From positions 1,054,001 to 1,118,000 of the forward strand of contig CAJFCV020000005.1 of the NCBI GenBank assembly GCA_904066235.2: a DNA stretch of 64,000 bases. The letters are read 5' to 3'. Shown one piece after another: positions 8,341 to 36,894 of this stretch. The notes below the pieces were generated by a model that searched no databases, had not been told where the DNA came from, and saw only the letters and a program-made list of their open reading frames with translations. The position numbers and the translations under genes were made by a program. The stretch is from Bursaphelenchus xylophilus (lineage: Eukaryota > Nematoda > Chromadorea > Rhabditida > Aphelenchoididae). Each line of letters opens with the position of its first letter. The first letter of the stretch is position 1.

Positions 8341-8399
8341 ACGAAAAATCCTTTAAAAAGACGTTTGAAACGACAGACTCTGGTCTGAAATTTGCATCT

Positions 8400-9404: not shown

Positions 9405-9800
9405 TTCATCAGGTGACATTTTATACGATGAATTACTTTTTCGTATAAAATGTCACCTTGCTCAATGAGAAAAGAAATAAATAAAAGCTACTGTTTATGT
9501 GTGCGTGACACAACAAGGATGGATTTAAAAAAATATCAGGTGACATTTTATACGACGACTTATTTTTTCGTATAAAATGTCACCTTGCTGAATGAAAAAA
9601 TAGATAAATAAAAGCTACTGTCTATGTATGCGTAAACACAACAAGGATGGATTTAAAAAAATATCAGGTGACATTTTATACGATGAACTATTTTTTCGTA
9701 TAAAATGTCACCTTGCTCAATGTGAAACAACAGATAAATGCTACTGTTTATTTACGCGTAAACACATCAAAGATAAGTCGAAGATATCCAAAAAGGTGCG
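9405..9800. repeat. Hairpin array E, three units
   Basis: Palindromes near 9412, 9538 and 9665 in the orientation opposite to arrays A-D, spacing about 127 bp. Confidence 0.88.
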
Positions 9801-9810
9801 TGTTCCAACT

Positions 9811-10030
9811 TAACGACGAGAGGTCGACTGTCCACCAAGCCGGAGAATCCAACGAATGAATGAATGCCAACCGAAAGGAGCAAAGTCGAGCATGGACCAA
9901 TTTGGCAACCCCAATTTCTCATACATTTAGTGCAAAATCTGCATAAAAATTGAATTTTTGCTCATTTGGGGGTCATTTTGGAAAAAGTTCCTCACTAGTT
10001 GACATGCGGTATATACCCTAACTGCGTGCG
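9811..10030 (-). repeat. Inverted copy of a peptide-gene leader and intron edge
   Basis: 9811-9895 is the reverse complement of the 5' leader of peptide genes 6 and 8 (GGAGAATCCAACGAATGAAT). 10005-10030 is the reverse complement of the intron sequence just after the TIR element in gene 6. A rearranged, partial inverted duplication of 10980-11700 without the signal-peptide exon. Confidence 0.75.
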
Positions 10031-10427
10031 GAAAAAGTTCCTTATTTTGGCCACAACAAAGGTACTCCGCGAACTGCGCCCAAGCTTGGGCACTAAAGTT
10101 AGGAAAAAACGCTTCGACCTAGCTGGAACTGAATTACTATAATAGCTCTATAGTTTTAAGGGTACCTAAAGGGCTGTGACGGCTCATTTAGTTCCATACG
10201 GAGGCAATAAGTTTAGTTCCGGACATGTTTCATCGTATAAAGTGTAAAATCACAGGCTGCAGCCGTTTTTGAAGGGTAAGATGGTACGTAAAAAAGAAGG
10301 TACCTCACTAACCAAATCCACTGCCCGGGCATTGACAACGATGAATTGAGCGTGCACGCTAAATTTGGGCTAATTCCGACCAGTTTCCGCAAAGTTATAG
10401 GTTGTGGCCAAAATAAGGAACTTTTAC
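10031..10427. mobile_element. 397-bp terminal-inverted-repeat element, copy A
   Basis: Ends AAAGTTCCTTATTTTGGCC and complement, inverted repeats of about 27 bp ending GGCCACAAC. Same length and sequence, in opposite orientation, as copy B at 11276-11672. No transposase. Target duplication not resolved. Confidence 0.8.
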
Positions 10428-10972
10428 CGTCATTTTCATTCTGGGGTGAGGTTGGTGACCGCTGACTCAGAGCTCTGAAGTTTTTTCGCCCTTCAGAAAA
10501 AGTTGTAAACACAAGTAAAAAAAAACAAAAGTTAAGCATACCTGAGGTCACGAACAACATCTCCTGGGGGTTCTCTGACATTTTCAATAAATGAAGTACA
10601 ATATTCGACGAAAGAGGGGGTACCACAATTTTTTAGTAGGTTTTCTGCTCGGGTTTAGATTACATTTTTGTGATTAATAGGATACAGGCATATTAGAGAC
10701 ATTTTATTTACAAACTCAACGCGTTTTTTAAGACGAACTATGATACATAAATGAAGTTTATATAAGCTTGAATTGTAAAGAAAGGTAATCTGAATGAAAG
10801 CGATTGTGTTAAATATCAAGCACCTTGTATTTTTCACATTTATTACGGTTATTGTGCCATTTAGGAATTGTTTCATAACTTCGTAATAAAAAAAATGAAA
10901 ATTTCCCATAGATGAGCGAAACTTCTATTTTCACGCAAATTTGGACTAATTTGCTACGCTACGCTATGCTAC
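10428..10972. other. Unique AT-rich stretch
   Basis: No gene or clear repeat seen. Reverse-strand open frames here lack splice or family support; those ending in copy A overlap the mobile element. Confidence 0.4.
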
Positions 10973-11086
10973 GTGACAAATAGTCGACTTTGCTCCTTTC
11001 GGTTGGCATTCATTCATTCGTTGGATTCTCCGGCTTGGTGGACGGTTGCCCTCTCGTCGTTAAGTGTGCTCTCTCGACTGCCGAAC

Positions 11087-12123
11087 ATGCGTCTCTTGTT
11101 GCTGTTTGTTGCATTGCTCGTCGTGATTAGTGCGGTTGAAGGCAAGTCATTCAAACTGGGAAGTACCATAAGTGCAATGCTAGGATTTTCTTTTAATTTT
11201 GTATACATGTAGAGTGTAGACTACATGTCAATTACAAGTGCGACACTCGGATTTTCTTTTTATTTCGCACACAGGGTAAAAGTTCCTTATTTTGGCCACA
11301 ACTTATAACTTTGCGGAAACTGGTCGGAATTAGCCCAAATTTAGCGTGTACGCTCAATTCATCGTTGTCAATGCCCGGACAGTGGATTTAGTTAGTGAGG
11401 TACCTTCTTTTTTACGTACCACCTTACCCTTCAAAAACGGCTGCGGCCTGTGATTTTACACTTTATGCGATGAAACATATCCGGAACTAAACTTATTGCC
11501 TCCGTATGGAACTAAATGAGCCGTCACAGCCCTTTAGGTACCCTTAAAACTATAGAGCTATTATAGTAATTCAGTGCCAGCTAGGTCGAAGCGTTTTTTC
11601 CTAACTTTAGTGCCCAAGCTTGGGCGCAGTTCGCGGAGTTCCTTTGTTGTGGCCAAAATAATGAACTTTTACTTTTTTTTTTCGCACGCAGTTAGGGTAT
11701 ATACCGCATGTCAATTAGTGTAAATTTAGGGTCATGCTTTGCAGAGGCAGCTGACAAGTTGAACGATCTTTGCGGAGAGAGAGAGAGAGTAAAACGCGGA
11801 GAGCGGTCAGAGAGGGAAGCAAAAAAAATTGTCGAATTTCGACCAAAAACAAACAGTTTTTGCTGCAAATCGCGATGTAGCATATGTCTTGAGAAAATTA
11901 CTCTAAAGTTGTGACAAATTTCGTCAATTTCTGAGCGTCGCACTTACAGTATTTCTCCGGTCAGTAAAAGCGTTTTTATTTTTATTATTTTCACTTTCAG
12001 CTGCTGATTGGTGCTTAACTAATTTGAACTGTGACAGCAACGAAATTTGTATTCTCGCCGTAAGTGTCAAAAAATAGGAGATGACAAAAAAATTTTCAGA
12101 ACTGTGTATCCTTGAATTTTTAA
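11087..12123 (+). CDS. Small secreted cysteine-rich peptide with GC donor (peptide gene 6)
   Basis: Exons 11087-11141, 12001-12059 and 12100-12123 (138 nt, 45 residues plus stop). Signal peptide MRLLLLFVALLVV to SAVEG; mature core C-x5-C-x5-C-x4-C starting AADWCLTN. Intron 1 begins GCAAGT where all paralogues have GT; GC-AG introns are spliced in nematodes, so the gene may still work. That intron is the longest (859 bp) because the 397-bp TIR element (11276-11672) sits inside the N1 element. Flanked downstream by array F. Confidence 0.7.
11276..11672. mobile_element. 397-bp terminal-inverted-repeat element, copy B
   Basis: GTAAAAGTTCCTTATTTTGG at the left end and its complement (one change) at the right. 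Inserted within N1 in intron 1 of peptide gene 6. The flanks read TTTCGCACACAG on the left and TTTCGCACGCAG on the right, so about 12-20 bp of the target appears on both sides. Confidence 0.82.
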
Positions 12124-12139
12124 GACGATGGAGCACACA

Positions 12140-12515
12140 CATTTCCAATCTATCTTTGATATGTTTACGCGTAAATAAATAGTAGCTTTTATTTGTTGTT
12201 TCACATTGAGCAAGGTGACATTTTATATGAAAAAATAATTCATCGTATAAAATGTCACCTGATATTTTTTTTAATCCATCCTTGTTGTGTTTACGCATAC
12301 ATAAACAGTAGCTTTTATTTATTTATTTTTTCATTGAGCAAGGTGACATTTTATACGAAAAAATAATTCATCGTATAAAATGTCACCTGATATTTTTTTT
12401 AATCCATCCTTGTTGTGTTTACGCATACATAAACAGTAGCTTTTATTTATTTATTTTTTCATTGAGCAAGGTGACATTTTATACGAAAAAATAATTCATC
12501 GTATAAAATGTCACT
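12140..12515. repeat. Hairpin array F, three units
   Basis: Palindromes near 12215, 12345 and 12470, spacing about 127 bp. Units 2 and 3 are almost identical, including TCCATCCTTGTTGTGTTTAC in the spacer. Confidence 0.9.
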
Positions 12516-12745
12516 TGATGAAAAATTTGTAAGAAGACATTTGAAACGACGGAAACTGAAGAATTAATCCAATCGTTACCATTTTTGGCCAAGATTTGCA
12601 TTGCACTGCGCAAAAAATTGCTTTTAGTTTTTGCACAGTGCAAATTTCAGTTTAATTTTTTCATTAAAAAGCAAAGCGTAAAATCAGTTTTATTACTTCA
12701 TAAAGAATCTTTTGACCGCATCGTGCCCTGTCACGATTAAGAACG
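12516..12745 (-). pseudogene. M13-like gene 3' end, inverted fragment
   Basis: Reverse-strand copy of the 3' flank and last few codons of the M13-like gene (compare 17655-17850), breaking off at about 12745. With array F and peptide gene 6 it forms a second peptide-plus-M13-end module like the one at 16.2-17.9 kb. Confidence 0.78.
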
Positions 12746-12890
12746 TGAAGAATTTCATTTCCTTGAATTATTAAGCGACAAGGATCATTAAACTAAAAAT
12801 AGTAATCATCTTACTGAAGTTCACTTGGCACGTTAGAGAGGTTCAATTTGGCACACTAACAAAGAGGAGGAAGGTCGGTCAGAATCCTTT
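12746..12890. other. Unique junction segment
   Basis: Sequence between the inverted fragment and the left end of the large palindrome. No feature seen. Confidence 0.4.
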
Positions 12891-13112
12891 CCATATTAGT
12901 GCAAAAATTTGCAGAAATATTTTTTTGCACGGTGAAAAATTCAGCGAAAATTTTTGCACTGTGCGAAATTCCAAATTTATAGATATTTTGCACCGGGAAA
13001 AATTCAAAAAAAAAATTTTGGCACTGTGCGAAATTCCGAATTAATTTTTCGCACCGTGCAACATTTCGAATTCTTTTCACCGTGCAAAATTCAAAAAAAA
13101 TAATTTTTTCAG

Positions 13113-13950
13113 GCTCATACAGAACGAATGGAAGTTGGTGACAAAACTTATGTCGGCTTTGGATGGGAAGCAGTGACCTGGCCATTCTTTGCGACGTCTC
13201 TTCAGCCGTCCTTGGCGTTTTCAAACTTTGTCTTCGCTTTTCAAGATGAGGCGGGTGAGTTGGTTTTTGTTTTTGAAAAAAGTTTTTTTTCCGTTTGCAC
13301 AGTGCAGAAAAGGTGGTTTTGAAATTTTTGCACAGTGCGAGCGAAGAAAGGCCCTGAATTTTGTACAGTGGAAAAAAATATTTTTTTTTTTTAATTTTGC
13401 ATTGATGTGAAAATTTAAACTTTGCACTGTGCAAGAAAAAAGATTTTTTTTATTTTTGCACATTGCAGATACCGTAGTTTTGAAATTTTTGCGCAGTGCA
13501 AGTCTGTGCATTATCCACAAAATTTTTTTTTGCACAGTGCAGAATCCAAAAAAATAAAAAAAATTGACTGCACTGATTCCACCATTTTTTTCAGTCAGTC
13601 AAATTGTCCACGACGCCTACGTCCGTCTGAATGCGAAAGCCGTCCGAAAAACGCGAGTTTCGGGCTCGATTATTGACACTTTGTCCGATGTTCAGCTCTA
13701 CTTCATCAATCTGGCTCAAACATTGTTGATTCAGAGGGCCAAATATGATGCAACCACACTCTTCGACGATAACGACAAGATTTGGAAACTGTTCAAATGC
13801 CTGAGGCCATTTTCTAATGCCTTTAAATGCGAGCCGGGTACCAAATACTACCAAGTGGAGGAATGTCGAGTTCTCAAAGGAAACATATTCCCAAATTACA
13901 ATTTGAGTTACTATGGGCACGACGCGGTCAAAAGATTCTTTATGAATTAA
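13113..13950 (+). pseudogene. M13-like gene fragment (last two exons), left palindrome arm
   Basis: Exons 13113-13254 (142 nt) and 13595-13950 (356 nt) have exactly the lengths and splice sites of exons 6 and 7 of the complete gene on the other arm (18441-18582, 17820-18175). The first starts AHTERMEVGDKTYVGFGW; the second ends KRFFMN and stop. No upstream exons exist on this arm: before 13113 lies only the GCAC-N-GTGC intron sequence, which ends at the palindrome edge. It is a truncated copy without signal peptide, though its frame is intact and it could be transcribed from elsewhere. Confidence 0.85.
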
Positions 13951-14212
13951 TAAAACTGATTTTACGCTTTGCTTTTTAATGAAAAAATTAAACTGAAATT
14001 TGCACTGTGCAAAAACTAAAAGCAATTTTTTGCGCAGTGCAATGCAAATCTTGGCCAAAAATGGTAACGATTGGATTAACTCTTCAGTTTCCATCGTTTC
14101 AAATGTCTTCTTACAAATTTTTCATCAGGTGACATTTTATACGATGAATTATTTTTTCGTATAAAATGTCACCTTGCTCAATGTGAAACAACAAATAAAA
14201 GCCACTGTTTAT

Positions 14213-14894
14213 TTACGCGTAAATTGGTGTACATCGCTGAAATTATTTTTTGTCATTTCTCCGCCACCTGTTTTTTAACACTTACAAAGAACAGAGTACA
14301 TCTTTCGCCCTTCTCACAATCTTTTCTACCCCAGCACCAACCTCCAGCTGAAAGTGAAAATAAAAATATAATATTAAAAACGCTTTTACTGACAGGGGAA
14401 GAACTTGAGTGCGACGCTCAGAATTTGATGAAACTTGGCACAGCTTTAGAATAACTTTCTCAAAGACATATGCAAGGCTTCTATCTCGCACTTTGCAGAA
14501 ACTACCTTTTTAGTGTAAAAAAATGTCGACCCATTTTGCGAATTTTGGGAGCAAAAGTTTTATGCTGATTTCTACCGTATAGGAAAATGTTTCCACAAAA
14601 AAAAACTTTTCCATGCGAAACTGGCCAAGATATTGCCAAAAAAGTGTTTTTTCCCAGACCGCTCTCCACGTTTAGTGTACTCTCTCGGCGGCAAAGATCG
14701 CCGACAATCTCGGCTTCCCCTGCAAAGCGCGAACTAAAATTTACAGCAATTGATGTGTGGCCTATACCCAAACTGTGTGCGAAATAAAAAGAGAATCCGA
14801 GTGTCGCACTGCACGTACTTCCCATTTTGAATGACTTACCTTCAACCGCACTAATCACGACGAGCAATGCAACAAGCAGCAACAAGAGACGCAT
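14213..14894 (-). CDS. Small secreted cysteine-rich peptide (peptide gene 7, left palindrome arm)
   Basis: Reverse-strand exons 14840-14894, 14286-14347 and 14213-14236 (141 nt, 46 residues plus stop). Signal peptide MRLLLLLVALLVV to SAVEG; mature core C-x5-C-x5-C-x5-C beginning AGGWCWGRKDC and rich in charged residues. All three exons equal those of gene 8 on the other arm. The open frame extends upstream of the chosen start into a conserved leader (VDFAPFGG), which is probably 5' UTR because genes 3 and 5 differ there. Intron 1 keeps a complete N1 element, unlike gene 8. Confidence 0.78.
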
Positions 14895-15152
14895 GTTCGA
14901 CAGTTGAAAGACCATGCTTTTGAAAACGACGAAAGGTCGACCGTCCACCGCGCCGGAGAATCCAACGAATGAATGAATGCCACCGAAAGGAGCAAAGTCG
15001 ACCATTTGTCACGTAGCACAGCGTTCTGTACTTTTTTGGAATGATTCCGACACCGATTTTTTCAAATTCTTCTAAAATAGCCCGCATTTACGCGGGTGTA
15101 ATAATTTTCTATGCACTGTGCAAAATTTCAGAAAATTTTTTTGCACGGTGCA

Positions 15153-15931
15153 GAACTCAGCAAGAATTTTTGCATTTTTTATGATTTTTCAAGTTTGTTT
15201 CTTGCACCGTGCAAAATTTCGAGTTTATTTTTTGCACAGTGCACTGCAGGATGAGCCAAGTCTTTCTCCTTGGATGGTCAACTCTTCCTCTTAAAATTCA
15301 TTTTTGTCAAGATTAATATAAATTTCTTTATGTTTTAATCTGCATACATCGACAGGACAATAACCCCATAAGTAAGTTAAATTATCCCTCTTTCTGACTC
15401 TGCAACAATTTTTTGCATTACATAAGTTTATCCTTGCGTATTCAGACATTGTAGTAGGTATATAAATTTAGATGGATGCTGTTCGTTCTTGCCATTCCAT
15501 GAACGAAATTTGAAAGTCTTCCCCACAAAAGAACCGGCGTCGAGCCTTCGTGCCAGAATTGTTTCAGCATGAAAGGACTTACAGTTTTTTTGTTGATTCG
15601 GTTTTCGATATTACACTAGGTACTTTTATCAATTTGCAGGCAAAATCTAATTTTTTTGAGGTTTAAACTCGGAAAACTATAAAGCTGAGCCATTACTAAA
15701 CCGTCCCCAACATAAATATTCTTTCAAACCCGGGTTTGAGATGTTTTCGGGTCTAAGTGATCAAGTACAACGTGGATCTAAAAAAGTCTCAAATACCTCT
15801 CATACTGTTCTAAACATGTTTTTGATCGACCAGGGACCTTTTAAATATGGTTTGCGAAGTTTTAATACGCATCTATGGCCGCGGATACATTAAAATTGTT
15901 CCATACCTAAAATCTGAAAAAAAATCAAAAA
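15153..15931. other. Palindrome spacer
   Basis: Unique AT-rich DNA. GCAC-N-GTGC sites at 15204 and 15234 continue the 30-bp phase of 15113 and 15143 in the adjoining arm. No gene seen. Confidence 0.5.
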
Positions 15932-16190
15932 CTGCACCGTGCAAAAAAATTTTCTGAAATTTTGCACAGTGCATAGAAAATTATTACACCCGCGTAAATG
16001 CGGGCTATTTTAGAAGAATTTGAAAAAATCGGTGTCGGAATCATTCCAAAAAAGTACAGAACGCTGTGCTACGTGACAAATGGTCGACTTTGCTCCTTTC
16101 GGTGGCATTCATTCATTCGTTGGATTCTCCGGCGCGGTGGACGGTCGACCTTTCGTCGTTTTCAAAAGCATGGTCTTTCAACTGTCGAAC

Positions 16191-16704
16191 ATGCGTCTCT
16201 TGTTGCTGCTTGTTGCATTGCTCGTCGTGATTAGTGCGGTTGAAGGTAAGTCATTCAAAATGGGAAGTACGTGCAGTGCGACACTCGGATTCTCTTTTTA
16301 TTTCGCACACAGTTTGGGTATAGGCCACACATCAATTGCTGTAAATTTTAGTTCGCGCTTTGCAGGGGAAGCCGAGATTGTCGGCGATCTTTGCCGCCGA
16401 GAGAGTACACTAAACGTGGAGAGCGGTCAGAGAGAAAAGCCTTGCATATGTCTTTGAGAAAGTTATTCTAAAGCTGTGCCAAGTTTCATCAAATTCTGAG
16501 CGTCGCACTCAAGTTCTTCCCCTGTCAGTAAAAGCGTTTTTAATATTATATTTTTATTTTCACTTTCAGCTGGAGGTTGGTGCTGGGGTAGAAAAGATTG
16601 TGAGAAGGGCGAAAGATGTACTCTGTTCTTTGTAAGTGTTAAAAAACAGGTGGCGGAGAAATGACAAAAAATAATTTCAGCGATGTACACCAATTTACGC
16701 GTAA
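16191..16704 (+). CDS. Small secreted cysteine-rich peptide (peptide gene 8, right palindrome arm)
   Basis: Exons 16191-16245, 16570-16631 and 16681-16704 (141 nt, 46 residues plus stop), identical in coding sequence to gene 7. Intron 1 is 324 bp, about 180 bp shorter than in gene 7 because the middle of N1 is deleted (the sequence jumps from GAGCGGTCAGAGAGAAAA to the GCATATGTCTTTGAGAAAG stretch). The leader GGCATTCATTCATTCGTTGG upstream matches gene 6. Start at MRLLLL chosen by analogy; an in-frame ATG at 16170 would add seven residues. Confidence 0.8.
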
Positions 16705-16824
16705 ATAAACAGTGGCTTTTATTTGTTGTTTCACATTGAGAAAGGTGACATTTTATATGAAAAAATAATTCATCGTGTAAAATGTCACCTGATATTTTTT
16801 TTAAATCCATCCTTGTTGTGTTTA

Positions 16825-17549
16825 CACAACAATTAATCCCAATTGAAAAGCGCTTTTTTAGCTAATCGTTGCAATTATTGATTGAAATTTTTGAACACTT
16901 CGTTACAAAAAGACGGTCCAACAAATATTATCGCCTCTCACTTTTGAGGACATCGGGTGATTGGATAAATAGTAAATAAGAAGGAGGGAATAGAACTCTA
17001 TCCGCACCACCTAAAATAATTTCTGCAGTTTTTACCGTTTGCAAGATATAGCCACCTTAAGTATTCAACAATTGCAATCTTTCCCGCGGTCTAACCGACT
17101 TATAATAACGAAAAATCGCATGAAACTTGGAAGTCAACATTGATACATTCTTATCAAACAGCATGCAAAAAATCGCGGCACATTTACTACTCGGCTGAGG
17201 AGTTATACATCAATTTTTCCCCATAACAAAAGTCAGTTCCCGGCTTTTTGGCACTTTTTGGCATTCTGCAAATGGGAAAAATAAATATAAAAAAGTCATG
17301 AAGATTTATATATTTTATCAATTATAGTGTCTTTACGTGTAAATTTAGACTTTAATGGCTCATACCCATGTCATTTGTCAACTTGCTGACGTCTGAGGGA
17401 ACTTTCGGCTAGGAAACGGGACTTGGAAGGCGATAAAATGGTTTTTATAAAAAAAAATTTTCTTTGCAAATTCTTTATTTTGCACAATGCCAAACTCCTT
17501 TCCATTTTCGTGGTGAGGCAAAAGACTGCAAGCGAGATTAATTGTTGTG
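16825..17549. mobile_element. 725-bp element with 14-bp TIRs and TTA duplication (PIF/Harbinger-like MITE)
   Basis: CACAACAATTAATC at 16825-16838 and its perfect complement at 17536-17549, flanked by TTA at 16822-16824 and 17550-17552. The empty site is readable in array F (GTGTTTACGCATAC), confirming insertion into a hairpin-array spacer after the arms formed, since the left arm lacks it. TTA target duplications are typical of PIF/Harbinger. No transposase seen inside. Confidence 0.85.
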
Positions 17550-17819
17550 TTACGCATACATAAACAGTAGCTTTTATTTATTTTTTCATTGAGCGAGGTG
17601 ACATTTTATACGAAAAAATAATTCAACGTATAAAATGTCACCTGATGAAAAATTTGTAAGAAGACATTTGAAACGACGGAAACTGAAGAATTAATCCAAT
17701 CGTTACCACTTTTGGCCAAGATTTGCATTGCACTGCGCAAAAAATTGCTTTTAGTTTTTGCACAGTGCAAATTTCAGTTTAATTTTTTCATTAAAAAGCA
17801 AAGCGTAAAATCAGTTTTA

Positions 17820-20800
17820 TTAATTCATAAAGAATCTTTTGACCGCGTCGTGCCCATAGTAACTCAAATTGTAATTTGGGAATATGTTTCCTTTGAGAAC
17901 TCGACATTCCTCCACTTGGTAGTATTTGGTACCCGGCTCGCATTTAAAGGCATTCGAAAATGGCCTCAGGCATTTGAACAGTTTCCAAATCTTGTCGTTA
18001 TCGTCGAAGAGTGTGGTTGCATCATATTTGGCCCTCTGAATCAACAATGTTTGAGCCAGATTGATGAAGTAGAGCTGAACATCGGACAAAGTGTCAATAA
18101 TCGAGCCCGAAACTCGCGTTTTTCGGACGGCTTTCGCATTCAGACGGACGTAGGCGTCGTGGACAATTTGACTGACTGAAAAAAATGGTGGAATCAGTGC
18201 AGTCAATTTTTTTTATTTTTTTGGATTCTGCACAGTGCAAAAATAATTTTTTTTAGAAAAATTATGCACAGTGAAAAAAAAATTTTTGGATAATGCACAG
18301 AAAAAAAAATTTTTTATTTTTTTTGCACAGTGCAAAATTTAGGTTTTTTTGCTTGCACTGTGCAAAAATTTCAAAACCACGTTTTCTGCACTGTGCAAAA
18401 CGACAAAAAATTTTTTTTTCAAAAACAAAAACCAACTCACCCGCCTCATCTTGAAAAGCGAAGACAAAGTTTGAAAACGCCAAGGACGGCTGAAGAGACG
18501 TCGCAAAGAATGGCCAGGTCACTGCTTCCCATCCAAAGCCGACATAAGTTTTGTCACCAACTTCCATTCGTTCTGTATGAGCCTAAAAAAATTAGTCGTT
18601 TTAAATTTTGCACAGTGCAAAAAAATAAATTTGGAATTTCGCACAGTGCAAAAAATATGTTTATTGAATTTTGCACCGTGCAAAAAAATATTTATAAATT
18701 TGGAATTTCGCACAGTGCAAAAATTTTCGCTGAATTTTGCACGGTGCGAAAAATTAATTCAGAATTTCGCACGGTGCAAAAATTTTCGCTGAATACAGTG
18801 CAAAAAAATATTTCTGCTAAATTTTGCACGGTGCAAAAAATAATATCGAAAAATCGCACGGTGCGAAAAAATATTTTTGCTGAATCTTGCACCGCGCAGA
18901 TTTTTTTTTTTTTTTGATTTTGCACAGTGCAGAAAAAAACATTTTTTTGGTTTTTTGACAGTGAAAAAATTTTTAAATTCAGCACTGTGAAAGACATTTT
19001 TTTGTGGTTTTCAAACTGCACTGTGCAAAAAATAAACTCGAAATTTTGCACGGTGCAAAAATTTTCGCTGAATTTTGCACCGTGCAAAAAAATATTTCTG
19101 CTAAATTTTGCACGGTGCAAAAAATAATATCGAAAAATCGCACGGTGCGAAAAAATATTTTTGCTGAATTTTGCATCGCGCAGATTTTTTTTTTTGATTT
19201 TGCACAGTGCAGAAAAAAAATTTTTTGACAGTGAAGAAATTTTTAAATTCTGCACTGTGAAAGACATTTTTTTGGGGTATTCACGGTGCACTGTGCAAAA
19301 AATAAACTCGAAATTTTGCACGGTGCAAGAAACAAACTTGAAAATCATAAAAAAAGAAAAAATTTAAAAAAAAATCTTAAATTTTGCACAGTGCAAAGAA
19401 TTTTTTTTTGGCTTTTAATGGTACACGGTGCAAAAGATAAATTTTCAAATTTTTCATCTAAAAATTCAAAATTTTAACTTCCAGTGCTCATATTTCCATA
19501 CATATTTTCAAACTCACATCCAACGGCGGTGTCCAGAACATATTCAATCTCTTCTCGATATTATACTTCAACAGCGGCAAGTAATTGTTCTGATGGCGTC
19601 TTCTGTAGGGCATACTCATGTCCAAATTGCCGAAATATTTGGTGAAAGTGTCCTTCTCGAAAATCGGATGACTGAATTTTTCGAATTTCAGTCGATTGCG
19701 GACGTAATCGATTTGTCGCTTCTTCTCGGCGTCGCTGACATTCAGCCAACGATATGTGGCCTCGTAATCCTCGACAATTGCCGTCATGTATTCGAGGACG
19801 GTCTGGTCGATTTCTTCCTGACCTGAAAGTAGAAAAAATTAAAAAAATTTTTTTTGAGTTTGAAAAAGTTTTTGCAAAATTCGAAAAAAAACAATTTTCA
19901 AATTTTGCACTGTGCAAGGACGAATTTTTCAATTTTGCACAGTGCGAAACATTGAGTTTCAAATTTTGCACTGTGCAATATTTTTTTTGCACAGTGCAAA
20001 GACGGATTTTTGAATTTTGCACAGTGGAAAAAAAATTTTTTGAAATTTTGCACAGTGAAACAGCGAATTTTTTTAAAATTTTGCACAGTGCAAAACAATT
20101 TTTTTCAAAATTCGGCACGGTGCAAAAGAAGGTTTTTTGAATTTTGCACGGTGCAATAAATTTTTTTCCGCACGGTGCAAAGACGGATTTTTGAATTTTG
20201 CACAGTGGAAAAAAAAATTTTTGAAATTTTGCACAGTGCAAAACACTTTTTTTCAAAATTCGGCACGGTGCAAAAGAAGGTTTTTTGAATTTTGCACAGT
20301 GCGAAAAAAACTTGTTTTTCGTAACGCACTGTGCAAAAAATTGCTCCTGTGTTTTACACATTGCCAAAAAAAAAATTCAAATTTTGCCCGCTGCAAAACT
20401 CAAAGCAAAAATCTCTTTTCCCGCTTACCTTTCGGTGGAGGAAACTCGTAATCAAGCAGCATGAACTTGTAATGCATTGGGAAGAGATCCCTGACCATCT
20501 CGGCACAAGACCCGTAAGGGTCTATTTTCCTCTCTCTCATGCTGTCGATAAAATACGCCAAAAGCTGTCGACGGGCGTCACCCTGAAAGTTAACATAGAG
20601 TTTGTCCTAATATTTCTTACAAACAACGCCAAAAAAATTTTTTTGCTTTGCACAGTGCAAAATTTGGTACCTTATTTTCTGCACTGTGCAATCGGTTTGA
20701 TGGCCAAATACGGCACTGGGCCACCGAGTTAACGGCTTAAAATACGAAATGTGCGTGTGGTTTAGAATTTAAAACGTGTTTCTTTTTACGAAAGTCAAAA

Positions 20801-23578
20801 ATTTGCATTGCACAGTGCAGAAATATCTAAATTTCGTTTTTCGCACAGTGCAACCATTTTGATTGTTACAGATGGCGTTGTGAATGCCCAAAAGGTCCTC
20901 AGAAACAACATATACTTTTTTTTGCCAAAATTGAACGCATGGCTTTGCAAAATTGATGTGTATTGGCATTGCACAGTGCGAAAAATCAATCGCCGAATTT
21001 TGCACCGTGCGAAATCATAAATTTTAATTTTTGCACAGTGCAATAGTAAAAATAAAAAAAATATATTTTTTACATAAAAAAGATGGTCTTGGCATGCCAT
21101 AAAACCATTTACCTCTGTACTACTCGGATAATAAATATTGAGGAAGCTCGGAATAAACCCGGGGATCCCAAAAATCCTCTGTGCCATCGTATCGCACAAT
21201 TTGGCTCGTTTTGCTGGGTCAGCAACAGCCTCGTAACAAGTTCCATTCATGCCTTTCATAGTTGGCGGCGGTCCGTACTCGACAAGATGCCCAAAATGCA
21301 TCCAGAAGTCGGGGAGACCATACTTGAAAGTCCAGGAAATAACTTTGACATAAATGTCGTTAAATGCATCCTCGTCACTGAACGCGGCTTTACTATAGAA
21401 GTTATAGAGGATACGATAATTGTCATTGCGTTCGTCGGTGGTATCTCCGGGCCCCGGGTTGCGGTCAATGTTTAGCAGAGTCGTGTTGCTCTCGCACTGT
21501 GCGTAGAAATCTTTGATCGTTTTGATGGGTGCGGGCTGAAGATATAGGGGTAAAAATTGATCAAAGCAAAAGTATAGACTTTAGTTAAAAGCTTTTTTTT
21601 CGATTTTTTTGAAAGTCTTGAATGCACAGCGCAGAAATAAAAAAATAAGTTTTTGCACCGTGCAATCACTTTTTGACTTGTTTAAAGATTCATGGTAGAA
21701 GGTAACGAGATAAAAATTACTACGATATTGCAAAACTGCTTCTGCCAATACTATTTCTTTGTTTAGAGATCTAAAAATTAGCTGCACAGTGCGCAAATCA
21801 AAATTCAAATTTTTGCACCGTGCAAAATTTTTTCAACTTTTTGGCTGTTTGTAAAGGTGAGTACTAGAATAAAAAGTGATGGATAAGGAAAGGAAGCCAG
21901 TTTACACCATACTACGTATGTTTTTTAGGCCAAATTACATTGCACAGTGCGTAAACTTGAAAACATATTTTTTGCACCGTGCGTTGAAAAGTTTGGCATT
22001 TTCCAAAGTTGCAGAGGAAGAAAATGTAATGGAAAATGAAATAGAGGGTGATAGGAAAATGCGTTCTCAAAAACAAAAAGCTTTCAGGTCTAAAGATTGC
22101 GGGTTCAGTGCAAACATTTGATTTTTCGTCCTGCACAGTGCAGTCGATGGTATTGGAAATTATTCGGCTGTAAAATTGTTTTATGATATACGAAATAATC
22201 GACAGATATTTTCTTTGTCTGTACAAGCTATTTTTATCTGTCTTACAGCGATATATTTCCTGTACTCCGCCGAAATCTCAAATTATGTTATCCGCACTGT
22301 GCAATGTGATTTAGCAAAAAACTGAAAATTCCAGTCAGAATTTCTATCGCTTTCTTATCAAATCACAACCAAATTTGCCCCAAACTTACATCACTGTCAC
22401 TTCTTTCTTTCAGAATCCTCTCTGCGGTCTGGATTTTGTGTTTTTGGAAGGCGGACTTTATGACTGTTACGAGGCCATCGCCGGCATAGCGCGGAAAGTC
22501 TTCGCAGGGGTCGTAGGAGCGGTTCATAGCCGCTTCAATCAGCTCGCCTTTGTATTTGACATACTCGGTGTTCTGAAAAAAATATTATAAAGTAAGAAAA
22601 GTGGAGCCTCTGCACAATGAAGGGCATCTTTGTGGCCCGATTTGAATTGGCTATAACTTCTTTCGTTTTTGGCCAAATCTTAAAATTATTTTTTTCCCTG
22701 AATCCTCAGACAACCCCATTTTGTTTGATACCAAATATGTTATACATAAATAAGTGTCATCTACAGTTATTGGATTTATTCACGAAGTTTGTCCAGAACC
22801 GAGGGAATGCCTTCACCAAGGACCATTCGACGAATTCTGGTGTTCTTATTCTCATCGTCGATTTTCGGCAGGGGAAATTCCACCGTATTTTTCTTTCACA
22901 CCGTACTCCATTTTCGGACACACCGGGAAACACCGAAAAAACAACCGAAAAAATGACCTCCAAGAAAAAAAATCCAATAACTGTAGATGACACTAAGCTA
23001 CGTATAACATACTTGGTATCAAACAAAATGGGGTTGTCTGAGGATTCAGAGAAAAAAAGAATTTTAAGATTTGGCCAAAAACGAAAGAAGTTATAGCAAA
23101 TTCAAATCGGGCTACAAAGATGCCCCACCCTGTATTTCAAGAAAACCTGTCTATAACGAATAAATTTTTAATATTGTAAAGAGGTTGCAAGTGTCAAGTG
23201 TAAGTCAAAATTAACCTCTGTATAACAAAACCCTTCTATAACGAATATTTTTTTGTTCTGCTCGATTTTTCTATGGACGAAAAATCATGTTATCCATGAC
23301 AAAAATTGATCAAATTTTTTTGAAAAATCTATTTTTTCGAAAACAAAAACTGTGTCTATATAGGTAGTACGCCCCGGAAAACTCAGAAATGACATTGATT
23401 TTCCTCAAAAATTACCGTAACATACTGAAATTGTAAAAAAATTGATGAAAATGACACCTTTTCCTTAAAAAATCCATATCTTTCCTCTATAAGTAGTTTG
23501 ATTTTTTGATTTTCTCACCGGATTTATTCCATTTACCACTCCGAATATTCCCAAAAATATTAGACTTGAGAGTTTCAT
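17820..23578 (-). CDS. Secreted M13 (neprilysin)-like protein lacking the zinc motif
   Basis: Seven reverse-strand exons: 23519-23578, 22390-22572, 21113-21535, 20429-20582, 19518-19822, 18441-18582 and 17820-18175, summing to 1623 nt (540 residues plus stop) with all phases consistent. Exon 1 is a signal peptide (MKLSSLIFLGIFGVVNG). SYDPCEDFPRYA matches the DPCxDFxxYA motif that opens the M13 ectodomain. Exon 5 (LNVSDAEKKRQIDYV through KYFGNLDMS to WTPPLD) matches the end of the M13 N-domain. The C-terminus (DVQLYFINLAQ, SNAFKCEPGTKY, EECRVL) matches the family's end. M13 enzymes are usually about 700-750 residues. Here exon 6 goes straight from the segment equivalent to VFPAGILQPPFF into AFSNFVFAFQDEA where HExxH should stand, and the following ExxxD helix is missing. 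It is probably a catalytically dead homologue. Introns are filled with GCAC-N-GTGC sites. Confidence 0.82.
18600..19430. repeat. Phased GCAC-N-GTGC array in M13-like intron 5
   Basis: Sites start at 18610, 18641, 18673, 18710, 18739, 18769, (18794 degenerate), 18826, 18856 and 18888 (degenerate), mean step about 31 bp, then continue past a partial tandem duplication (about 18780-18990 resembles 19030-19260). Flanks tend to TTTT/AAAA but spacers differ. Confidence 0.9.
19900..20350. repeat. Phased GCAC-N-GTGC array in M13-like intron 4
   Basis: Site starts 19907, 19937, 19968, 19989, 20019, 20050, 20083, 20115, 20146, 20170, 20200, 20231, 20263 and 20294: steps of 30-33 bp with two steps of 21 and 24 bp. 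Some sites carry one changed base (GTGG or GTGA in the right half). Confidence 0.92.
20640..22300. repeat. Scattered GCAC-N-GTGC pairs in M13-like introns 2 and 3
   Basis: Isolated pairs or triplets with otherwise unrelated spacers: 20650/20681, 20810/20843, 20971/21002/21033, 21624/21655, 21784/21815 and 21952/21974. Steps are 31, 33, 31, 31, 31, 31 and 22 bp. Pairs are separated by ordinary intron or exon sequence. Confidence 0.88.
22621..23133. mobile_element. Inverted-repeat element in M13-like intron 1, possibly carrying a gene fragment
   Basis: Arms of about 150 bp (GGGCATCTTTGTGGCCCG at 22622 and CGGGCTACAAAGATGCCC near 23107) enclose about 210 bp. On the reverse strand the interior reads a protein-like stretch (PKIDDENKNTRIRRMVLGEG, then IPSVLDKLRE and stop) that shifts frame partway. 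The right end is CACCCTGTA; the left end is degraded. Confidence 0.65.
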
Positions 23579-23805
23579 CGTACAAAATGAAAATGAAGAT
23601 CGAAAACCACAAAGGAAATTAGAATTGAAACGCTTATTAAAATTGAATTTGCCACTTTATTTGATTATAATCAAAATTTGAAATTCAAATTGAAATTATA
23701 GCCACTGCTTGAAGAGAGAGTTTGTTTTTGTAAAATACGTTTATTCGTCCTTAAAAAAAACTCTTTTTAATATAATAATTTTTTTGAAAATATCGCACTT
23801 GATCC

Positions 23806-26800
23806 TTACAAACGAGCTCGTTCGTTGCCAACGGGACGTCCTCGGACTCTCCAAACATCCTGAAAAAAATATTTAGTTATTTTGGCAATGAAAAATTAGA
23901 AAAATTTTGTTTTTTTTTTTTTTTTGCACTGTGCAAGAAGTTAATTCTTGAATTCCGCACTGTGCGAAAATTCAAAATCAATTTTTTGCACTGTGCAAAA
24001 ATCAGAAAAAAAAATTTGCACGGTGCAGAATAATTTTTCTGCACTGTGCAAGAAATTAATTCTTAAATTTTGCACTGTGCAAAATAAAAATTTTTTTTTT
24101 ATCGCACTGTGCGAACATTCAAAATCAATTTTTTGCACGTGCAAAGCTCAAAAAAAAAAAACATTTGCACGCACTGTGCAAGAAATTAATTTTTAAATTT
24201 TGCACTGTGCAAAATAAAATTTTTTTTTATCGCACAGTGCGAACATTCGAAATCTATTTTTTGCACTGTGCAATGTTAAAAAAAATATGTTTTTAACGGT
24301 ACAGTCCAAAAATCAAAAAGAGACATTTGCACTATGCAAAATCAAATAAAAAAACTTCTGAGGCGTGAGATTAAAAAAAAAAACAAAATGCACAGTGCAA
24401 AATTAAAATATTCTTTTGCACTGTGCAAGATCAAAAATTCTTCCCGCTTTGTATATATTCAAAAAAATTGCATCGTGGAAAACATAACCCCCATTCCGAC
24501 TCACCGCAAAGCTCCATCCCGGCCATTCGACGCCTCTTTTCTCGCACTTTGCCTTGGCCATATCCAAAATTTCCTTTTCCAAAATCTCCTGATTCGTCCC
24601 TTTCACATCAATGTAATCGCAAAGCTTGCCATTCGCGTAATGACAGGAGATGGCTTTTCGGAAGCCTTCAGTGCGATTAGCGCCGCTTCCATGAATCAGC
24701 AGTGGATGGAAGAAGACGGTGTCTCCGGCGTCCATTTCCACGTAAACCCGGGGGCAATTCGGGTCGTAGTCTTGGATTCCGTAGTAAGCTTTGTTTACAC
24801 CGCCCTGTAAATATTTTTCTGGGTAATTTTTGAAAGAAAAATGGTCTTAAAAGTTCAAAAAAAAGACTGCACTGTGCGGTGAAATCAAATTGAAATTTTT
24901 GCACAGTGCGGAAAAATGACGTCAGAAAATTTTTAAATAAAATGTGGCTTGTTAAATTGATGAGAGTAGAGTAATTTAAAATTAATTTCGTCAAATTACC
25001 AGCAAAATTACGCGTTATATTACACATTAAATTTTCCGCACAGTGCGAAATTTAAAATTTCAAAATTCCGCATTGTGCGGTAAAAAATTTCATACACAGA
25101 ATGTCTAAAATACAACAGCGGTTCATTTTAGACGATTCTCATCAAGTTTTAGCCTTTGCTCTACAAAATCAGGCGTTATATTGCACTTGAGGTTTGTTGC
25201 ACAGTGCAATATTCATAAATATGAAATGTGCACTGTGCAGTCGGGGAAAATAAAAAATCTGGTCATAAGAAGAAAATTCAGATTAAAAACAGTCCTTTAT
25301 AGAAAATTTTGGGTCAAAAAGCATCTGTACAACACAGTAAATTACACTTTTGTCATTCGCACAGTGCAAAAAGATAATTCTGGCCAAACAGAAAAAGTCA
25401 GTGAAAAAATTAAAATTTTTGAAAAAAAGCTTGTCAAGAAGCTTAAAATTGTATGCTGTAAAAATGTTCGTTATACAAAGACATCGTTATATAGAGGTTT
25501 TGGACTTTTTTTTTATTGTTATTACACAGCTTAAAATTACGTATTTTAAAATTTTCCAATCGAAAAAACCTTTCTCACCTCCCATTTAGGATAATCATGG
25601 TCCAATAATTTCCCCTTGTGACTTCTAGGGACCACCACCAAACATCCATTGGCTCGATTTACCTTCTCCATGGCAGTCCAGGCGCAACAAATAAAATCGG
25701 CCGGCCTAAACGGGAAATACTGCAAATCCTGATGCAACGGATGTCTAGAAGTCAATTTTCCCGAATCGGGAGGCTTGTTGATCAACATCGTATGCATTGA
25801 CATCAAATTTTCTTGGCCAATTAGGTCGCCGACAACATCCAAAATCGCGGGATTCCGACAGAAATCGAACAAAACAGGGTCGAAATTGAAGTCCTGCAGC
25901 TTTGTGATGGCGCGTTCGCCGGATTTGAACTCCGACTTTGCGATGGCAACATCCCGCATAACGACCATTTCGGAGGGAACGTTTTTGCCCGAGCAGATTT
26001 CACGGAAACGGTCCCTGAAAAGAGAGTTTTTGATGACAAGAAATTTTAGCTGGCGCGGGTAAAACTTGGCATATATTTAAGTTAGGAATTATGGAAGACA
26101 TATTTGGAATTTTTAGCTTGCGCTTTGAAGAGACCATTGAGATTTTTTAAAATTCGCAGTTTTGAGAGGTAAGGGGGGACCAAGGCAAAAATTTTGAAAA
26201 AATTATTAACTCAGATTTGGCCAAAACTTGGCCTAAATTTAGGTTAGGACTTTATAAGACATAATTGAGATTTCTAACTCGCGCACTGCAGAAATCTCTG
26301 AGCTTTTTTTAATTTTGTTAAAATCTTCAGTTTTGGGAGGTAAGGGGGGACCAAGGCAAAAATAAAAAAAAAAAAATTACCTGGCTCGGCCAAAACTTAG
26401 CATAGCTTTAGATTAGGACTTTGTAAGACATACTTGAAATTTTCAGCTCGCGTTTTGCAGAAATCTCCGAGATTTTTTAAAACTTTCAGTTTTGAGACGT
26501 AAGGGGGGAGCAAGGCAAAAATTTTGAAAAAATTATTTAATCAGATTTGGCCAAAACTTGGCATAAATTTAGGTTAGGACTTTATAAGACATAATTGAGA
26601 TTTTTAGCTCGCACATTGCAGAAATCTCTAATAAGCTTTTTTTACTTTTGTTAAAATTTTCAGTGTTGGGAGGTAAGGGGGGACCAAGGCAGAAATTTTG
26701 AAAAAATTATTAACTCAGATTTGGCCAAAACTTGGCATAGCTTTAGATTAGGACTTTGTTAAACATATTTGAAATTTTTAGCTCGCGTTTTGCAGAAATC

Positions 26801-34500: not shown

Positions 34501-36894
34501 ATTTCAACAGGAAAATCGATGATTTTAAAAAGAGCTTGGTGTTTAGTAAATGATGAGGCTAAAATTTGAGGTATTCAAGAGCATTGGGTTACTGTAATAT
34601 GTATTTTTTTCAAAAAATTCTGGATTTTTTGGGTTTTCTTGGGAAACTATGCATTTTTTGTGAATTTCAACCGGAAAAATTGATGATTTTAGAAGGAAGA
34701 AGGTGTGTAGTGAATGATGAGTCTAAAATTTGAGGTATTTAAGAGCATTGGGTTACTGTAACAACGATTTTTTTGGAAAATTTCCAGATTTTTTGGGGTT
34801 TCTCGGGAAATTGTGCATTTTTTGTGAATTTGAAGCAGAAAGTGGTTGGATTAGGCACAGACTAAGCTCATAGTATTGTTTAGGAAGGATTTTATATGTC
34901 CCACAGGGTGTTGAGATACTGTAATTTCAATTTTTTCGAGTTTTTTGTGAAAATGAGGCAAAAATTGGTCTTTTGCTTATTTAATGTTGTATTTTCAGCC
35001 TCGATTCGATCCCTTCGCCTACTACGGACAACAAATCGACGCCTCGGATGAGGAGAACGAAATCGGGCCGATCAACACCCCGGGCGAAGCGAGAAAAGAC
35101 CTCTCTTTGCGGAAGTTCGAACGCCCCTCCATCGAGCTCACCGAATTCGCCTTCAATCCCACCGGCCGCTCGTTCGCAGTGGTCTCCACGGAGGGAGTAA
35201 TGGTCTTCTCATTGGACAAACGACGAAGATTCCGACCGATTCGACTGGTGGAGGGAGCAACCATCAAAAAAGCGGAGGAACTGCTGGAAAATGAGGAATA
35301 TCATGAAGCACTGTTGATGTCTCTGGCCCTGGATGAAAAGGACTTGGTGGAAAAAGTGCTGGTGACAATCCCAATCGATGAAAGTAGGAGATTTTGGAAG
35401 ATTTTTGGGGATTTGAGGGAAAAGTTGAGAAAATTGAGGATTTTTGGGGAATAATGTTGAATTTGGATGATTAACGGTGTTAAATCTTGTTTTGTGAGGT
35501 TGAAATTTTACAAGGAAAGTACTTCTATGGGGTATGGAGTTACAGGTCGAGACATATATCAAAAAAATCGCAAAATTTTTCTGATTCAGAATATGTAAAA
35601 CTTAGCTGCCCAATTTTGGTTTGTAAGGACGAAAAAACCTTCAGAACTTTTCTTGCAACACCACGCAAGTAAACCCTGACATCTTGACAAGCCTTAAAAT
35701 ATAGTCGAGGCAAAAAGTCCTTAGAATTTTGCACTGTGCATAAACCCGAAAAAACATTTTGCACCGTGCATCCGACCGAAAAAGTGCTTTTGCACAGTGC
35801 AATTTTGTTGTTTTTGCCTTATTGTCGCGCGCGATTCCCATTTTTCTCAGCGACAAATCGACTTTTCGGGGTGCGACGAGATTTGGGGGCCGCGAAAAAT
35901 TCTAAGGACTTTTTGCCGCGACTAGTATCAAACTTGGAACTACTAATAATTCAAGTGTAGTATTAATCAAGTTTGATATTTTAAGGCTTGTCAAGATGCC
36001 AAGGTTTACTTTATCGGTCTGTCGGGAAAATAACGGCGGATCGTCGCGCCTCGGAATCGCCCATCATCGCTCTGCGACTGCAAGCCGCGACTTGGGATTT
36101 GGTGCGCGATAGCGGCGAGGCGAGACATTTTGATGCGACGATCCGCCGTTATTTTTCCGACAGACTGATAGCTCAAAAAAAAAGCTTTTGAATTGGTAAA
36201 AACTTGGTCAAAATAGCATTTGCGTGGGGTTGCGAGAAAGGTTCTGATGGTTTTTTCGCCCTTACAAACCAAAATTGGGCAGCTAATTTTTACACATTCT
36301 GAATCAGAAAAATTTTGCGATTTTTTTTGATGTATGTCTCGAGCTGTAACTGCACACCCTATAGAAGTACTTTCCTTGTAAAATTTCAATCTCACAAAAC
36401 AAGATTTAACACCGTTAATCATCCAAATCTGCCATTATTCCCAAAATCGTCATTTTTCTCAGTAAAAATTGAGCAAATTTAATTTACAGTCAGCAAAAAT
36501 AACGGGATTTTTTTGAGCTAAAATTGGGTTTTGAGCCGGTTTTTGCACCTAAAGTAATATATTTTTAGTTCAAAAAGAGATCCAGACTTTGGACGATCAA
36601 CTCGCCATCGAACTGCTCCGATATTTGGGCGCGAATATCAACAGAATCGCCAAAATCCGCATCCATCAGTACCTATTGATCTGCCGACATTTGGTCTTCA
36701 CCTTTGCCCAAACTTTCAAAGCAGACACCACTCTCACCGACTCGATTACGTCCCTCCAATTCTTCCTCAAAACCCACAAAGACCTGCTGCAGATCATCCA
36801 GTCCAATAAAGGACTCATCGACTTTGAACTCACCCAAAGACAATTGAACCAACTCAACAGAGAAATGGAAGAATTGAAGCCGCCTGGAGCATGA
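28562..36894 (+). CDS. pwp2: PWP2/UTP1, WD40 protein of the small-subunit processome
   Basis: A core component of the UTPB subcomplex that assembles on the 5' ETS of pre-rRNA in the nucleolus for 18S rRNA processing. Eleven exons: 28562-28579, 28649-28758, 28793-28887, 29015-29270, 29672-29810, 29900-30030, 30071-30226, 31368-31885, 33680-34134, 34999-35383 and 36569-36894. These sum to 2589 nt (862 residues plus stop) with every phase matching; human PWP2 is 919. The N-terminus (LSDVVGAVFQNGNLKF) fits the conserved start of the first propeller. WD motifs include GALYVWD, GGDDGLVKIW and KTVRVWDV (about residues 310-520). FDPFAYYG and LRKFERPSIELTEFAFNPTG begin the second half, and the C-terminal helical UTP domain (about 690-862) includes LDDQLAIELLRYLG. 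AATAAA at 36999-37004. The last five introns have been invaded by foldback elements; exons are intact. Confidence 0.96.
30688..31240. mobile_element. Foldback element in PWP2 intron 7
   Basis: Two arms of about 270 bp in inverted orientation (AAGGAAAGTACTTCTATGGG at 30689 and its relative near 31235) meet around ATTAATACTACACC/GGGGTAGTATTAAT. Same family as 35440-36440, and with outer 15 bp like the tRNA-bearing foldbacks. Confidence 0.85.
32289..32882. mobile_element. tRNA-bearing foldback element, copy 1
   Basis: Ends CAAGGAAAGTACTTTTATGG and complement, about 130-bp inverted arms, flanked by TTA on both sides (empty site ACTTTAGATGAC is visible in neighbouring repeat units). The interior carries a reverse-strand tRNA-like sequence at about 32591-32672. 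A second copy is at 58012-58603. Confidence 0.85.
32591..32672 (-). pseudogene. tRNA-Ser/Leu-like sequence inside foldback element
   Basis: Reverse strand has an A box (GTGTGGCCGAGTGGCTAG) and a B box (GGGTTCGATTTCC) with a long variable region, as in class II tRNAs. The acceptor ends do not pair, so it is not a working tRNA. It may give the element an internal pol III promoter. Confidence 0.72.
34330..34870. repeat. Tandem repeat in PWP2 intron 9
   Basis: Three units of about 155-160 bp with AGAGCATTGGGTTACTGTAA near 34416, 34580 and 34741. Confidence 0.75.
35440..36440. mobile_element. Compound foldback in PWP2 intron 10
   Basis: Outer arms (about 35440-35700 and 36180-36440) are inverted copies including TACAAGGAAAGTACTTCTAT and GGATGATTAACGGTGTTAAA. 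Nested inside are a TA-flanked element with GCAC-N-GTGC sites (35704-35922) and a small foldback of the GTCGGGAAAATAA family (about 36015-36172). Confidence 0.82.
35704..35922. mobile_element. 219-bp TA-flanked TIR element carrying three phased GCAC-N-GTGC sites
   Basis: TIR GTCGAGGCAAAAAGTCCTTA and its complement (27 bp, one mismatch), TA at 35702-35703 and 35923-35924. Sites GCACTGTGC 35731, GCACCGTGC 35761 and GCACAGTGC 35792 are 30 and 31 bp apart. GACTTTTTGTCGCGG-type words in the 5-8 kb segments resemble its ends. Confidence 0.8.

What the first reader, a model, noticed from the sequence alone, without database searches (positions are those of the whole stretch)
18600..25370. GCAC-N-GTGC palindromes phased at three (sometimes two) DNA helical turns
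Hand-measured start-to-start distances between 9-bp GCAC-N-GTGC sites cluster at 30-33 bp, with a minority at 21-24 bp. Examples: 19907 to 20294 (14 sites; steps 30, 31, 21, 30, 31, 33, 32, 31, 24, 30, 31, 32, 31), 23926 to 24135 (31, 31, 30, 23, 31, 32, 31) and 18610 to 18856 (mostly 29-32). About 31 bp and 21 bp are three and two turns of B-DNA, so sites would face the same side of the helix. The central base is free (A, T, G and C all occur) and spacers vary. This suggests an array bound by a dimeric protein, filling introns of two adjacent genes. The plain alternative is a minisatellite with a 31-bp unit.
Basis: partly seen in the sequence, partly recalled or inferred. Interest (0 to 1): 0.88.

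Follow-up and report, generated by a model that had tools for sequence, protein, structure and literature searches.

The report
Genome-wide nine-base palindrome binding-site arrays
A nine-letter mirror-image DNA word that looks like a landing site for a paired protein occurs tens of thousands of times in this pine wood nematode genome, often in rows about three DNA turns apart; mobile elements carry part of it, and the protein that would bind it is unknown.

Summary
The window is from Bursaphelenchus xylophilus. GCACNGTGC occurs 110 times in the window (0.22 expected) and 41,616 times in the genome (178 for the reversed pattern). Only a 1-bp gap is abundant: 303 copies against 1-9 for gaps of 0 or 2-20 bp. 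In paralogous copies the eight core bases change far less than their surroundings, the centre at least as fast. Flanking bases vary independently, against a stem. Genome-wide, sites are rarely closer than 18 bp and peak at 28-33 bp; the ~30 bp preference survives collapsing of similar spacers. There is no separate two-turn peak, and other runs step by 20, 25 or 34-38 bp, so strict helical phasing is not general. In a location sample paired sites avoid chromosome centres. Some sites lie in inverted-repeat elements; none was found enclosing the 18-25 kb arrays. Best reading: sites of an unidentified dimeric DNA-binding protein, spread by MITE-like elements and tandem duplication, and kept intact where they lie. 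A neutral repeat relic is the main rival.

The parts
18325..19394 (.). 21 exact GCACNGTGC sites, mostly 29-33 bp apart, with a 284-bp higher-order duplication at 18738-19328
   Evidence: Site list, count; tandem repeats; spacer test
19907..20334 (.). Array of 12 exact and 3 one-mismatch sites, steps 21-33 bp, between exon blocks 19518-19822 and 20429-20582
20650..22302 (.). Fifteen sites, mostly in groups 31-33 bp apart, recurring on a ~161-162 bp lattice; units otherwise almost unrelated; one site (21494) falls in exon block 21113-21535
   Evidence: (period 162.5, P=0.003 against random placement of the same clusters; weak residual similarity between units)
23926..24426 (.). 13 exact sites, steps mostly 23-32 bp with a few longer; includes a 128-bp duplication at 24041-24285
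24869..25367 (.). Six sites between two reading frames that match PhyH, near a 161-bp lattice (not significant alone, P=0.09)
35702..35924 (.). TIR element (arms 29 bp, 97%; ends of the CTAGTC..AAAGTCC type) with three sites at 35731, 35761, 35792 (30 and 31 bp apart), inside a larger inverted repeat 35426-36461
38984..41287 (.). Twelve sites in and beside a stretch rich in a second end type (CAGTCTGTCGGGAAAATAATG)
4795..18238 (.). 28 further sites, single or in short runs; 9 of them lie inside an inverted repeat 12418-14223 (arms 311 bp, 95%) and 6 inside one at 14647-16438 (arms 507 bp, 99%)

Best explanation
GCACNGTGC (extended YGCACNGTGCR) is most likely the binding site of a sequence-specific protein that binds as a symmetric dimer, one subunit per GTGCR half-site. 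Shown by sequence: exact dyad geometry, conserved core, free centre, minimum and preferred spacing, avoidance of chromosome centres in a sample, presence inside inverted-repeat elements. Inferred: sites were brought in and scattered by MITE-like DNA transposons, some of which carry sites ~30 bp apart; tandem duplication made arrays, many in introns; adjacent dimers need at least ~18-20 bp and sit best ~30 bp apart; and the sites stay under constraint where they lie, because a protein (a transposase or a transposase-derived host factor) still uses them. The protein and what its binding does are not known.
For: Abundance: 41,616 against 178 for the reversed pattern. Gap specificity: 303 at 1 bp against 1-9 at each gap of 0 and 2-20 bp in 300 kb. 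Constraint: in 857 site comparisons (not independent) core mismatch 4-9% per position, background 21.6%, centre 48%; inverted arm pairs outside the window, 11 pairs with 27 sites, core 6/216 against background 169/1382, P=6e-6; the three tandem alignments in the window with at least 75% identity and 300 bp, core 15/216 against 123/775, P=5e-4. Few near-misses: 18,654 one-mismatch sites (60,270 minus 41,616) against 8,060 for the control. Spacing: 55 pairs at 9-17 bp against 11,963 at 28-33 bp; after collapsing similar spacers 24 of 82 groups at 30-32 and 15 at 27-29. Flanks -1/+9 close to independent. Old 161-bp units keep the sites while the rest is near random. Inverted-repeat elements with sites; 589 ends of one family next to a site genome-wide.
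Against: No binding protein found, no binding data. Only one genome could be read, so constraint rests on paralogs, where array homogenisation and alignment of non-orthologous sites can mimic it; in the window-wide set the centre is saturated (203/292), so many of those alignments are not true orthologs. In the 3 inverted arm pairs inside the window core (1/24) did not differ from background (25/828). The counted TIR family has only 589 strict ends, and 38 of 73 sites in 20 sampled loci (96 of 110 in the window) lie near neither end type, so the transposon origin of most sites is not shown. Runs differ in step (about 20, 25, 31, 34-38 bp), which fits local repeat expansion as well as binding geometry.
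Confidence: 0.55

Rival explanations
1. A neutral relic: subterminal motif of transposons plus minisatellite expansion; the motif is common because its carriers were, and spacings are inherited from the parent elements.
For: Sites inside inverted-repeat elements, three of them 30/31 bp apart in one; a same-orientation run of such ends at C1:614302-615628; homogeneous runs with their own steps; bias to chromosome arms is usual for nematode repeats (general knowledge).
Against: Core is more conserved than flanks between inverted arms outside the window and between tandem copies without TIRs; the 161-bp units have lost almost all other similarity; few one-mismatch sites; spacing preference across unrelated spacers.
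Confidence: 0.28
2. An arm-marking chromosomal protein: the arrays anchor, pair or package chromosome arms, comparable to pairing-centre zinc fingers or to periodic A/T clusters in introns.
For: Paired sites of one kind avoid the middle 40% of chromosomes: 8 of 100 listed places (of 102), 7 of 73 after collapsing within 20 kb, P=1e-8; arrays between exons.
Against: Places lie on both sides of the centre on all six chromosomes, not at one end (on C4 the right-hand ones only at 0.64-0.70 of its length); no 10-bp A/T periodicity in the arrays; avoidance of centres alone is what repeats show; TIR ends with a site do occur in the middle of C1 (35 of 100 listed).
Confidence: 0.12
3. An RNA-level feature: the intron arrays fold into double-stranded structure in the pre-mRNA.
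For: One array folds far better than shuffles (z -9.7). In the window complementary -1/+9 pairs are slightly above independence (75 against 68.2).
Against: Strong folding follows from any set of palindromes. Exact letters rather than pairing are kept: outside the window complementary -1/+9 pairs are below independence (87 against 99.7) and C..A and T..G are common. Sites also occur in inverted-repeat elements away from the two genes.
Confidence: 0.04
4. A recombination signal like the RSS heptamer CACAGTG of RAG/Transib (resemblance recalled from memory).
For: GCACAGTGC contains CACAGTG.
Against: The centre is free and start-to-start spacing peaks near 30 bp; no nonamer was looked for; the RAG1 family search did not complete, so presence of such a recombinase is untested.
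Confidence: 0.01

Closest known systems
HIM-17 sites (m1m2 pairs) in CERP2/CELE2 MITEs of Caenorhabditis (PMC9757741, passages read)
   Same: Short motif pairs inside the inverted repeats of MITEs, thousands of copies, motif conserved above neighbouring sequence, a transposase-related (THAP) protein binds.
   Different: Two different motifs, 12-28 bp apart, also at germline promoters; here one palindrome with a fixed 1-bp gap, in arrays, tens of thousands of copies, in a clade IV nematode, binding protein unknown.
C. elegans pairing-centre motifs bound by HIM-8/ZIM zinc fingers (PMC9071541, passages read)
   Same: Short motif, enriched at particular chromosome regions, that recruits a DNA-binding protein.
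   Different: 12-base motifs at one end per chromosome; here a palindrome, sampled places on both sides of all six chromosomes.
Periodic An/Tn clusters of C. elegans (PMC7725773, passages incl. part of the abstract read)
   Same: Non-coding elements, used in introns, a noticeable share of the genome.
   Different: Defined by A/T periodicity; these arrays show the 30-34 bp repeat of A and T runs, no 10-bp one.
MITE- or foldback-derived satellites such as Drosophila Tetris (PMC4079207, search listing only)
   Same: A foldback element giving building blocks to a satellite.
   Different: Not compared in detail; here spacers are largely unrelated and mainly the 9-mer recurs.

Membership tests
Ordinary 31-bp minisatellite | Spacers align as copies of one monomer | tested here: not met
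   40 groups from 47 spacers, 0 of 17 adjacent pairs above the 99.9% shuffle level; weak residual similarity remains
MITE with subterminal sites | Terminal inverted repeats flanking the sites | tested here: inconclusive
   Met at 35702-35924 and in sampled loci (24 of 73 sites lie within 350 bp inside a type-A end); no inverted repeat with arms of 60 bp or more and span under 3 kb encloses the sites at 17760-25359, and neither end type occurs there
MITE with subterminal sites | Target-site duplication | tested here: inconclusive
   Ends read TACTAG..CTAGTA, compatible with a TA duplication, but this cannot be told from the element's own end
Dimeric protein binding site | Fixed dyad geometry with conserved half-sites | tested here: met
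Dimeric protein binding site | A protein binds it | not testable with these tools
   No binding data available
Periodic An/Tn clusters | 10-bp periodicity of A and T runs | tested here: not met
   AAAA and TTTT autocorrelation above 0.08 only at 30-34 bp, plus lag 8 for TTTT at about 0.08, in three arrays
C. elegans pairing centre | Motif concentrated at one end of each chromosome | tested here: not met
   Sampled pairs of one kind lie on both sides of the centre on all six chromosomes
C. elegans pairing centre | HIM-8/ZIM zinc-finger protein | not tested
   No search made
RSS/Transib signal | RAG1-type recombinase in the genome | not tested
   Seven requests unanswered

The most novel reading that the evidence does not exclude
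A nematode has domesticated a transposon-borne palindrome into a genome-wide system: a dimeric protein coats tens of thousands of regularly spaced sites along the chromosome arms and gives arms their identity (packaging, envelope anchoring or meiotic behaviour).
Probability: 0.2. Interest if true: 0.87.

Novelty: new variant of a known kind. Interest (0 to 1): 0.62.

Why it matters
A 9-bp dyad at about one copy per 1.9 kb of genome, with its core kept while its surroundings are lost, points to a DNA-binding protein with very many sites in a clade IV nematode. If real, it makes testable how such nematodes mark chromosome regions, and it would be a case outside Caenorhabditis of transposons spreading a binding-site network.

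Tried and rejected
Simple 31-bp monomer: not supported by spacer comparison. Two-turn class: no excess at 18-22 bp. Strict helical phasing: runs at ~25 and 34-38 bp are common in the C1 listings. Stem or cruciform pairing: flanks do not covary clearly. Inversion of the centre: its changes are of the ordinary spectrum, not mostly complements. Hypermutable centre: excess over CNG control positions significant at 75-85% identity (43/122 against 27/157, P=8e-4) but not at 85-92% (6/30 against 11/97) or 92-98.5% (1/21 against 0/75), so left open. Rfam at gathering threshold: only a tRNA in the window. Gene at 18.4-23.6 kb: no Pfam family above its cut-off for the exon peptides. Literature: no paper describing this motif was seen in the listings of searches, which cover open-licence PMC papers only; one search returned nothing.
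Full report
Source. The window is C5:1054001-1118000 of an assembly of 78,253,340 bases in 8 contigs. Its six long contigs (15,101,617; 12,140,115; 12,730,644; 12,794,883; 12,633,386; 12,822,979) match the v5 assembly of Bursaphelenchus xylophilus Ka4C1 (78.3 Mb, longest 15,101 kb, N50 12,794 kb, N90 12,140 kb; PMC7561696, whole text read), although that paper gives 11 scaffolds and this copy has 8. Contig C7 begins with TTAGGC-type telomere repeats. The species call rests on these lengths.

The observation. GCACNGTGC occurs 110 times in 64 kb (expected 0.22). Neighbour steps cluster at 30-32 bp. Among 47 spacers of steps 26-35 bp, 40 groups remain after collapsing those more alike than 99.9% of shuffled pairs; group spacings are 28 (2), 29 (1), 30 (12), 31 (16), 32 (5), 33 (4). 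Adjacent spacers are mildly more alike than shuffles, so distant common ancestry is not excluded.

Genome scale. 41,616 exact copies against 178 for the reversed pattern; with up to one mismatch 60,270 against 8,238. In 300,356 sampled bases GCAC-N1-GTGC occurs 303 times and gaps of 0 and 2-20 bp 1-9 times each. The site is therefore a rigid dyad. Pair counts by start-to-start distance: 9-17 bp 55; 18-22 bp 951; 23-27 bp 5,291; 28-33 bp 11,963; 34-38 bp 3,737; 39-43 bp 3,023 (the last bin includes pairs with a site in between). Per bp this is 6, 190, 1,058, 1,994, 747 and 605: one broad peak and near exclusion below 18 bp. These counts are not collapsed for duplicates. In the pooled sample, 193 neighbouring pairs at 18-70 bp collapse to 82 groups: 3 at 18-20, 7 at 21-23, 6 at 24-26, 15 at 27-29, 24 at 30-32, 6 at 33-44, 3 at 45-56, 2 at 57-59, 10 at 60-65 and 6 at 66-70; the 60-65 groups would fit a missed site. 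Runs elsewhere keep their own step, for example ~25 bp at C1:487322-487691 and, in part, ~20 bp at C1:342418-342835, so facing one side of the helix is not a general rule.

Constraint. In BLAST alignments of sampled repeats, seeded outside the motif, 857 site comparisons give 4-9% mismatch at core positions, 21.6% in the rest of the same alignments and 48% at the centre; 645 of 857 cores are intact in the other copy. By identity class: 90-98% core 4/480, background 5.6%; 80-90% core 82/1416, background 15.8%; below 80% core 349/4960, background 27.9%. Many comparisons are not independent. Between inverted arms of the same locus outside the window (11 pairs, 27 sites): core 6/216, centre 8/27, background 169/1382 (P=6e-6 for core); in the 3 pairs inside the window core 1/24, centre 0/3, background 25/828. 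Between tandem copies in the window I took the three alignments with at least 75% identity and at least 300 bp among all those listed: core 15/216, centre 14/27, background 123/775 (P=5e-4 for core). Over all alignments: core 217/2336, centre 203/292, background 1888/7845; the saturated centre shows that many of those pair non-orthologous sites.

Symmetry. Position -1 is mostly T or C and +9 mostly A or G. Window: TA 68, TG 16, CA 12, CG 7 of 110, complementary pairs 75 against 68.2 expected; elsewhere TA 72, CA 51, TG 46, CG 14 of 193, complementary pairs 87 against 99.7 expected. A hairpin or cruciform would call for pairing; near-independent half-sites fit a protein dimer. One array nevertheless folds strongly as RNA (z -9.7), as any set of palindromes would.

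The 161-bp lattice. Sites in 20600-22320 follow a period of 162.5 bp (P=0.003 against random placement of the same clusters); 24850-25400 gives 161.5 bp (P=0.09). Outside the motif, seven unit pairs are only slightly above shuffles (z 0.9 to 4.7); three pairs of the same unit list (20971/21494, 22133/24901, 24901/25038) were left out of that test as not contiguous or irregular. I read this as an old tandem repeat whose sites outlived the rest. A tandem repeat of the same period, without exact sites, lies at 26061-26961.

Carriers. Several sampled loci show elements with inverted ends TACTAGTC..AAAGTCC.. and sites just inside, for example L026 757-1029 (47-bp arms, 100%), L034 6061-6415 and L040 1910-2751. 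The window has one at 35702-35924 with three sites 30 and 31 bp apart. In the window 18 of 110 sites lie inside inverted repeats with arms of at least 100 bp and 85% identity: 9 in 12418-14223, 6 in 14647-16438, 3 in 35426-36461. No inverted repeat with arms of 60 bp or more and span under 3 kb encloses the sites at 17760-25359. Genome-wide 589 ends (280 forward, 309 reverse) fit a strict pattern of the CTAGTC end plus a site; of the 100 listed, all on C1, 35 lie in its middle 40%. In 20 sampled 10-kb loci 24 of 73 sites lie within 350 bp inside such an end, 11 more within 900 bp of a second end type, 38 near neither; in the window 3, 11 and 96 of 110. So elements carry part of the sites, and the origin of the plain arrays is inferred. 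A 15-kb contig holds a Tc5-type transposase reading frame; no link to these ends was tested.

Chromosome distribution. A pattern for pairs with C and G centres gave 102 places, 100 listed: 8 in the middle 40% of chromosomes, or 7 of 73 after collapsing within 20 kb, where 40% was expected (P=1e-8). This is one kind of pair, not all sites. Places lie on both sides of the centre on all six chromosomes; on C4 the right-hand ones reach only 0.70 of its length. Bias to arms is usual for nematode repeats (general knowledge).

Gene context. Six sites at 24869-25359 lie between two reading frames that match phytanoyl-CoA dioxygenase (PhyH; profile positions 170-213 and 21-169). The gene at 18.4-23.6 kb has exon blocks 18441-18582, 19518-19822, 20429-20582, 21113-21535, 22390-22572 and 23518-23578 with splice-like borders; arrays lie between them and one site (21494) lies in an exon block. 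These models are by eye, without transcripts, and exons were joined without a full open frame being shown.

Judgement. A dimeric protein is the best reading, with transposon-borne spread as its likely history. The neutral relic is the chief rival, and comparison with a second species would decide.

Noticed in passing
3331-3682, 4926-5308, 6588-6965, 7789-8307, 9408-9774, 12147-12519, 48651-48963, 54562-54898, 55488-55661, 56371-56728: A second, unrelated palindrome (GGTGACATTTTATACGA, a short A/T-rich middle, TCGTATAAAATGTCACC) recurs many times in the window, mostly in tandem repeats of about 127-148 bp.
   Followed up: no
26061-26961 and 32011-34831: Tandem repeats with periods of 153-164 bp (and about twice that) without exact GCACNGTGC sites, close to the 161-bp lattice of the site pairs.
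   Followed up: partly
12418-14223 and 14647-16438: Two large inverted repeats (arms 311 bp at 95% and 507 bp at 99%) that enclose 9 and 6 of the sites.
   Followed up: partly
C1:614302-615628 of G000: Seven element ends in the same orientation at 188-280 bp steps, as if the TIR element had become a tandem array.
   Followed up: no
L040 (C8:1-10000): A small contig with 60 sites in 10 kb and several nested inverted-repeat elements carrying them.
   Followed up: partly
L039 (C7) 1111-2457: Tc5-type transposase reading frame on a contig that starts with telomere repeat.
   Followed up: no
22622-23125: Inverted repeat with 159-bp arms (94%) and no GCACNGTGC sites inside.
   Followed up: no
46518-46589: A tRNA gene.
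   Followed up: no
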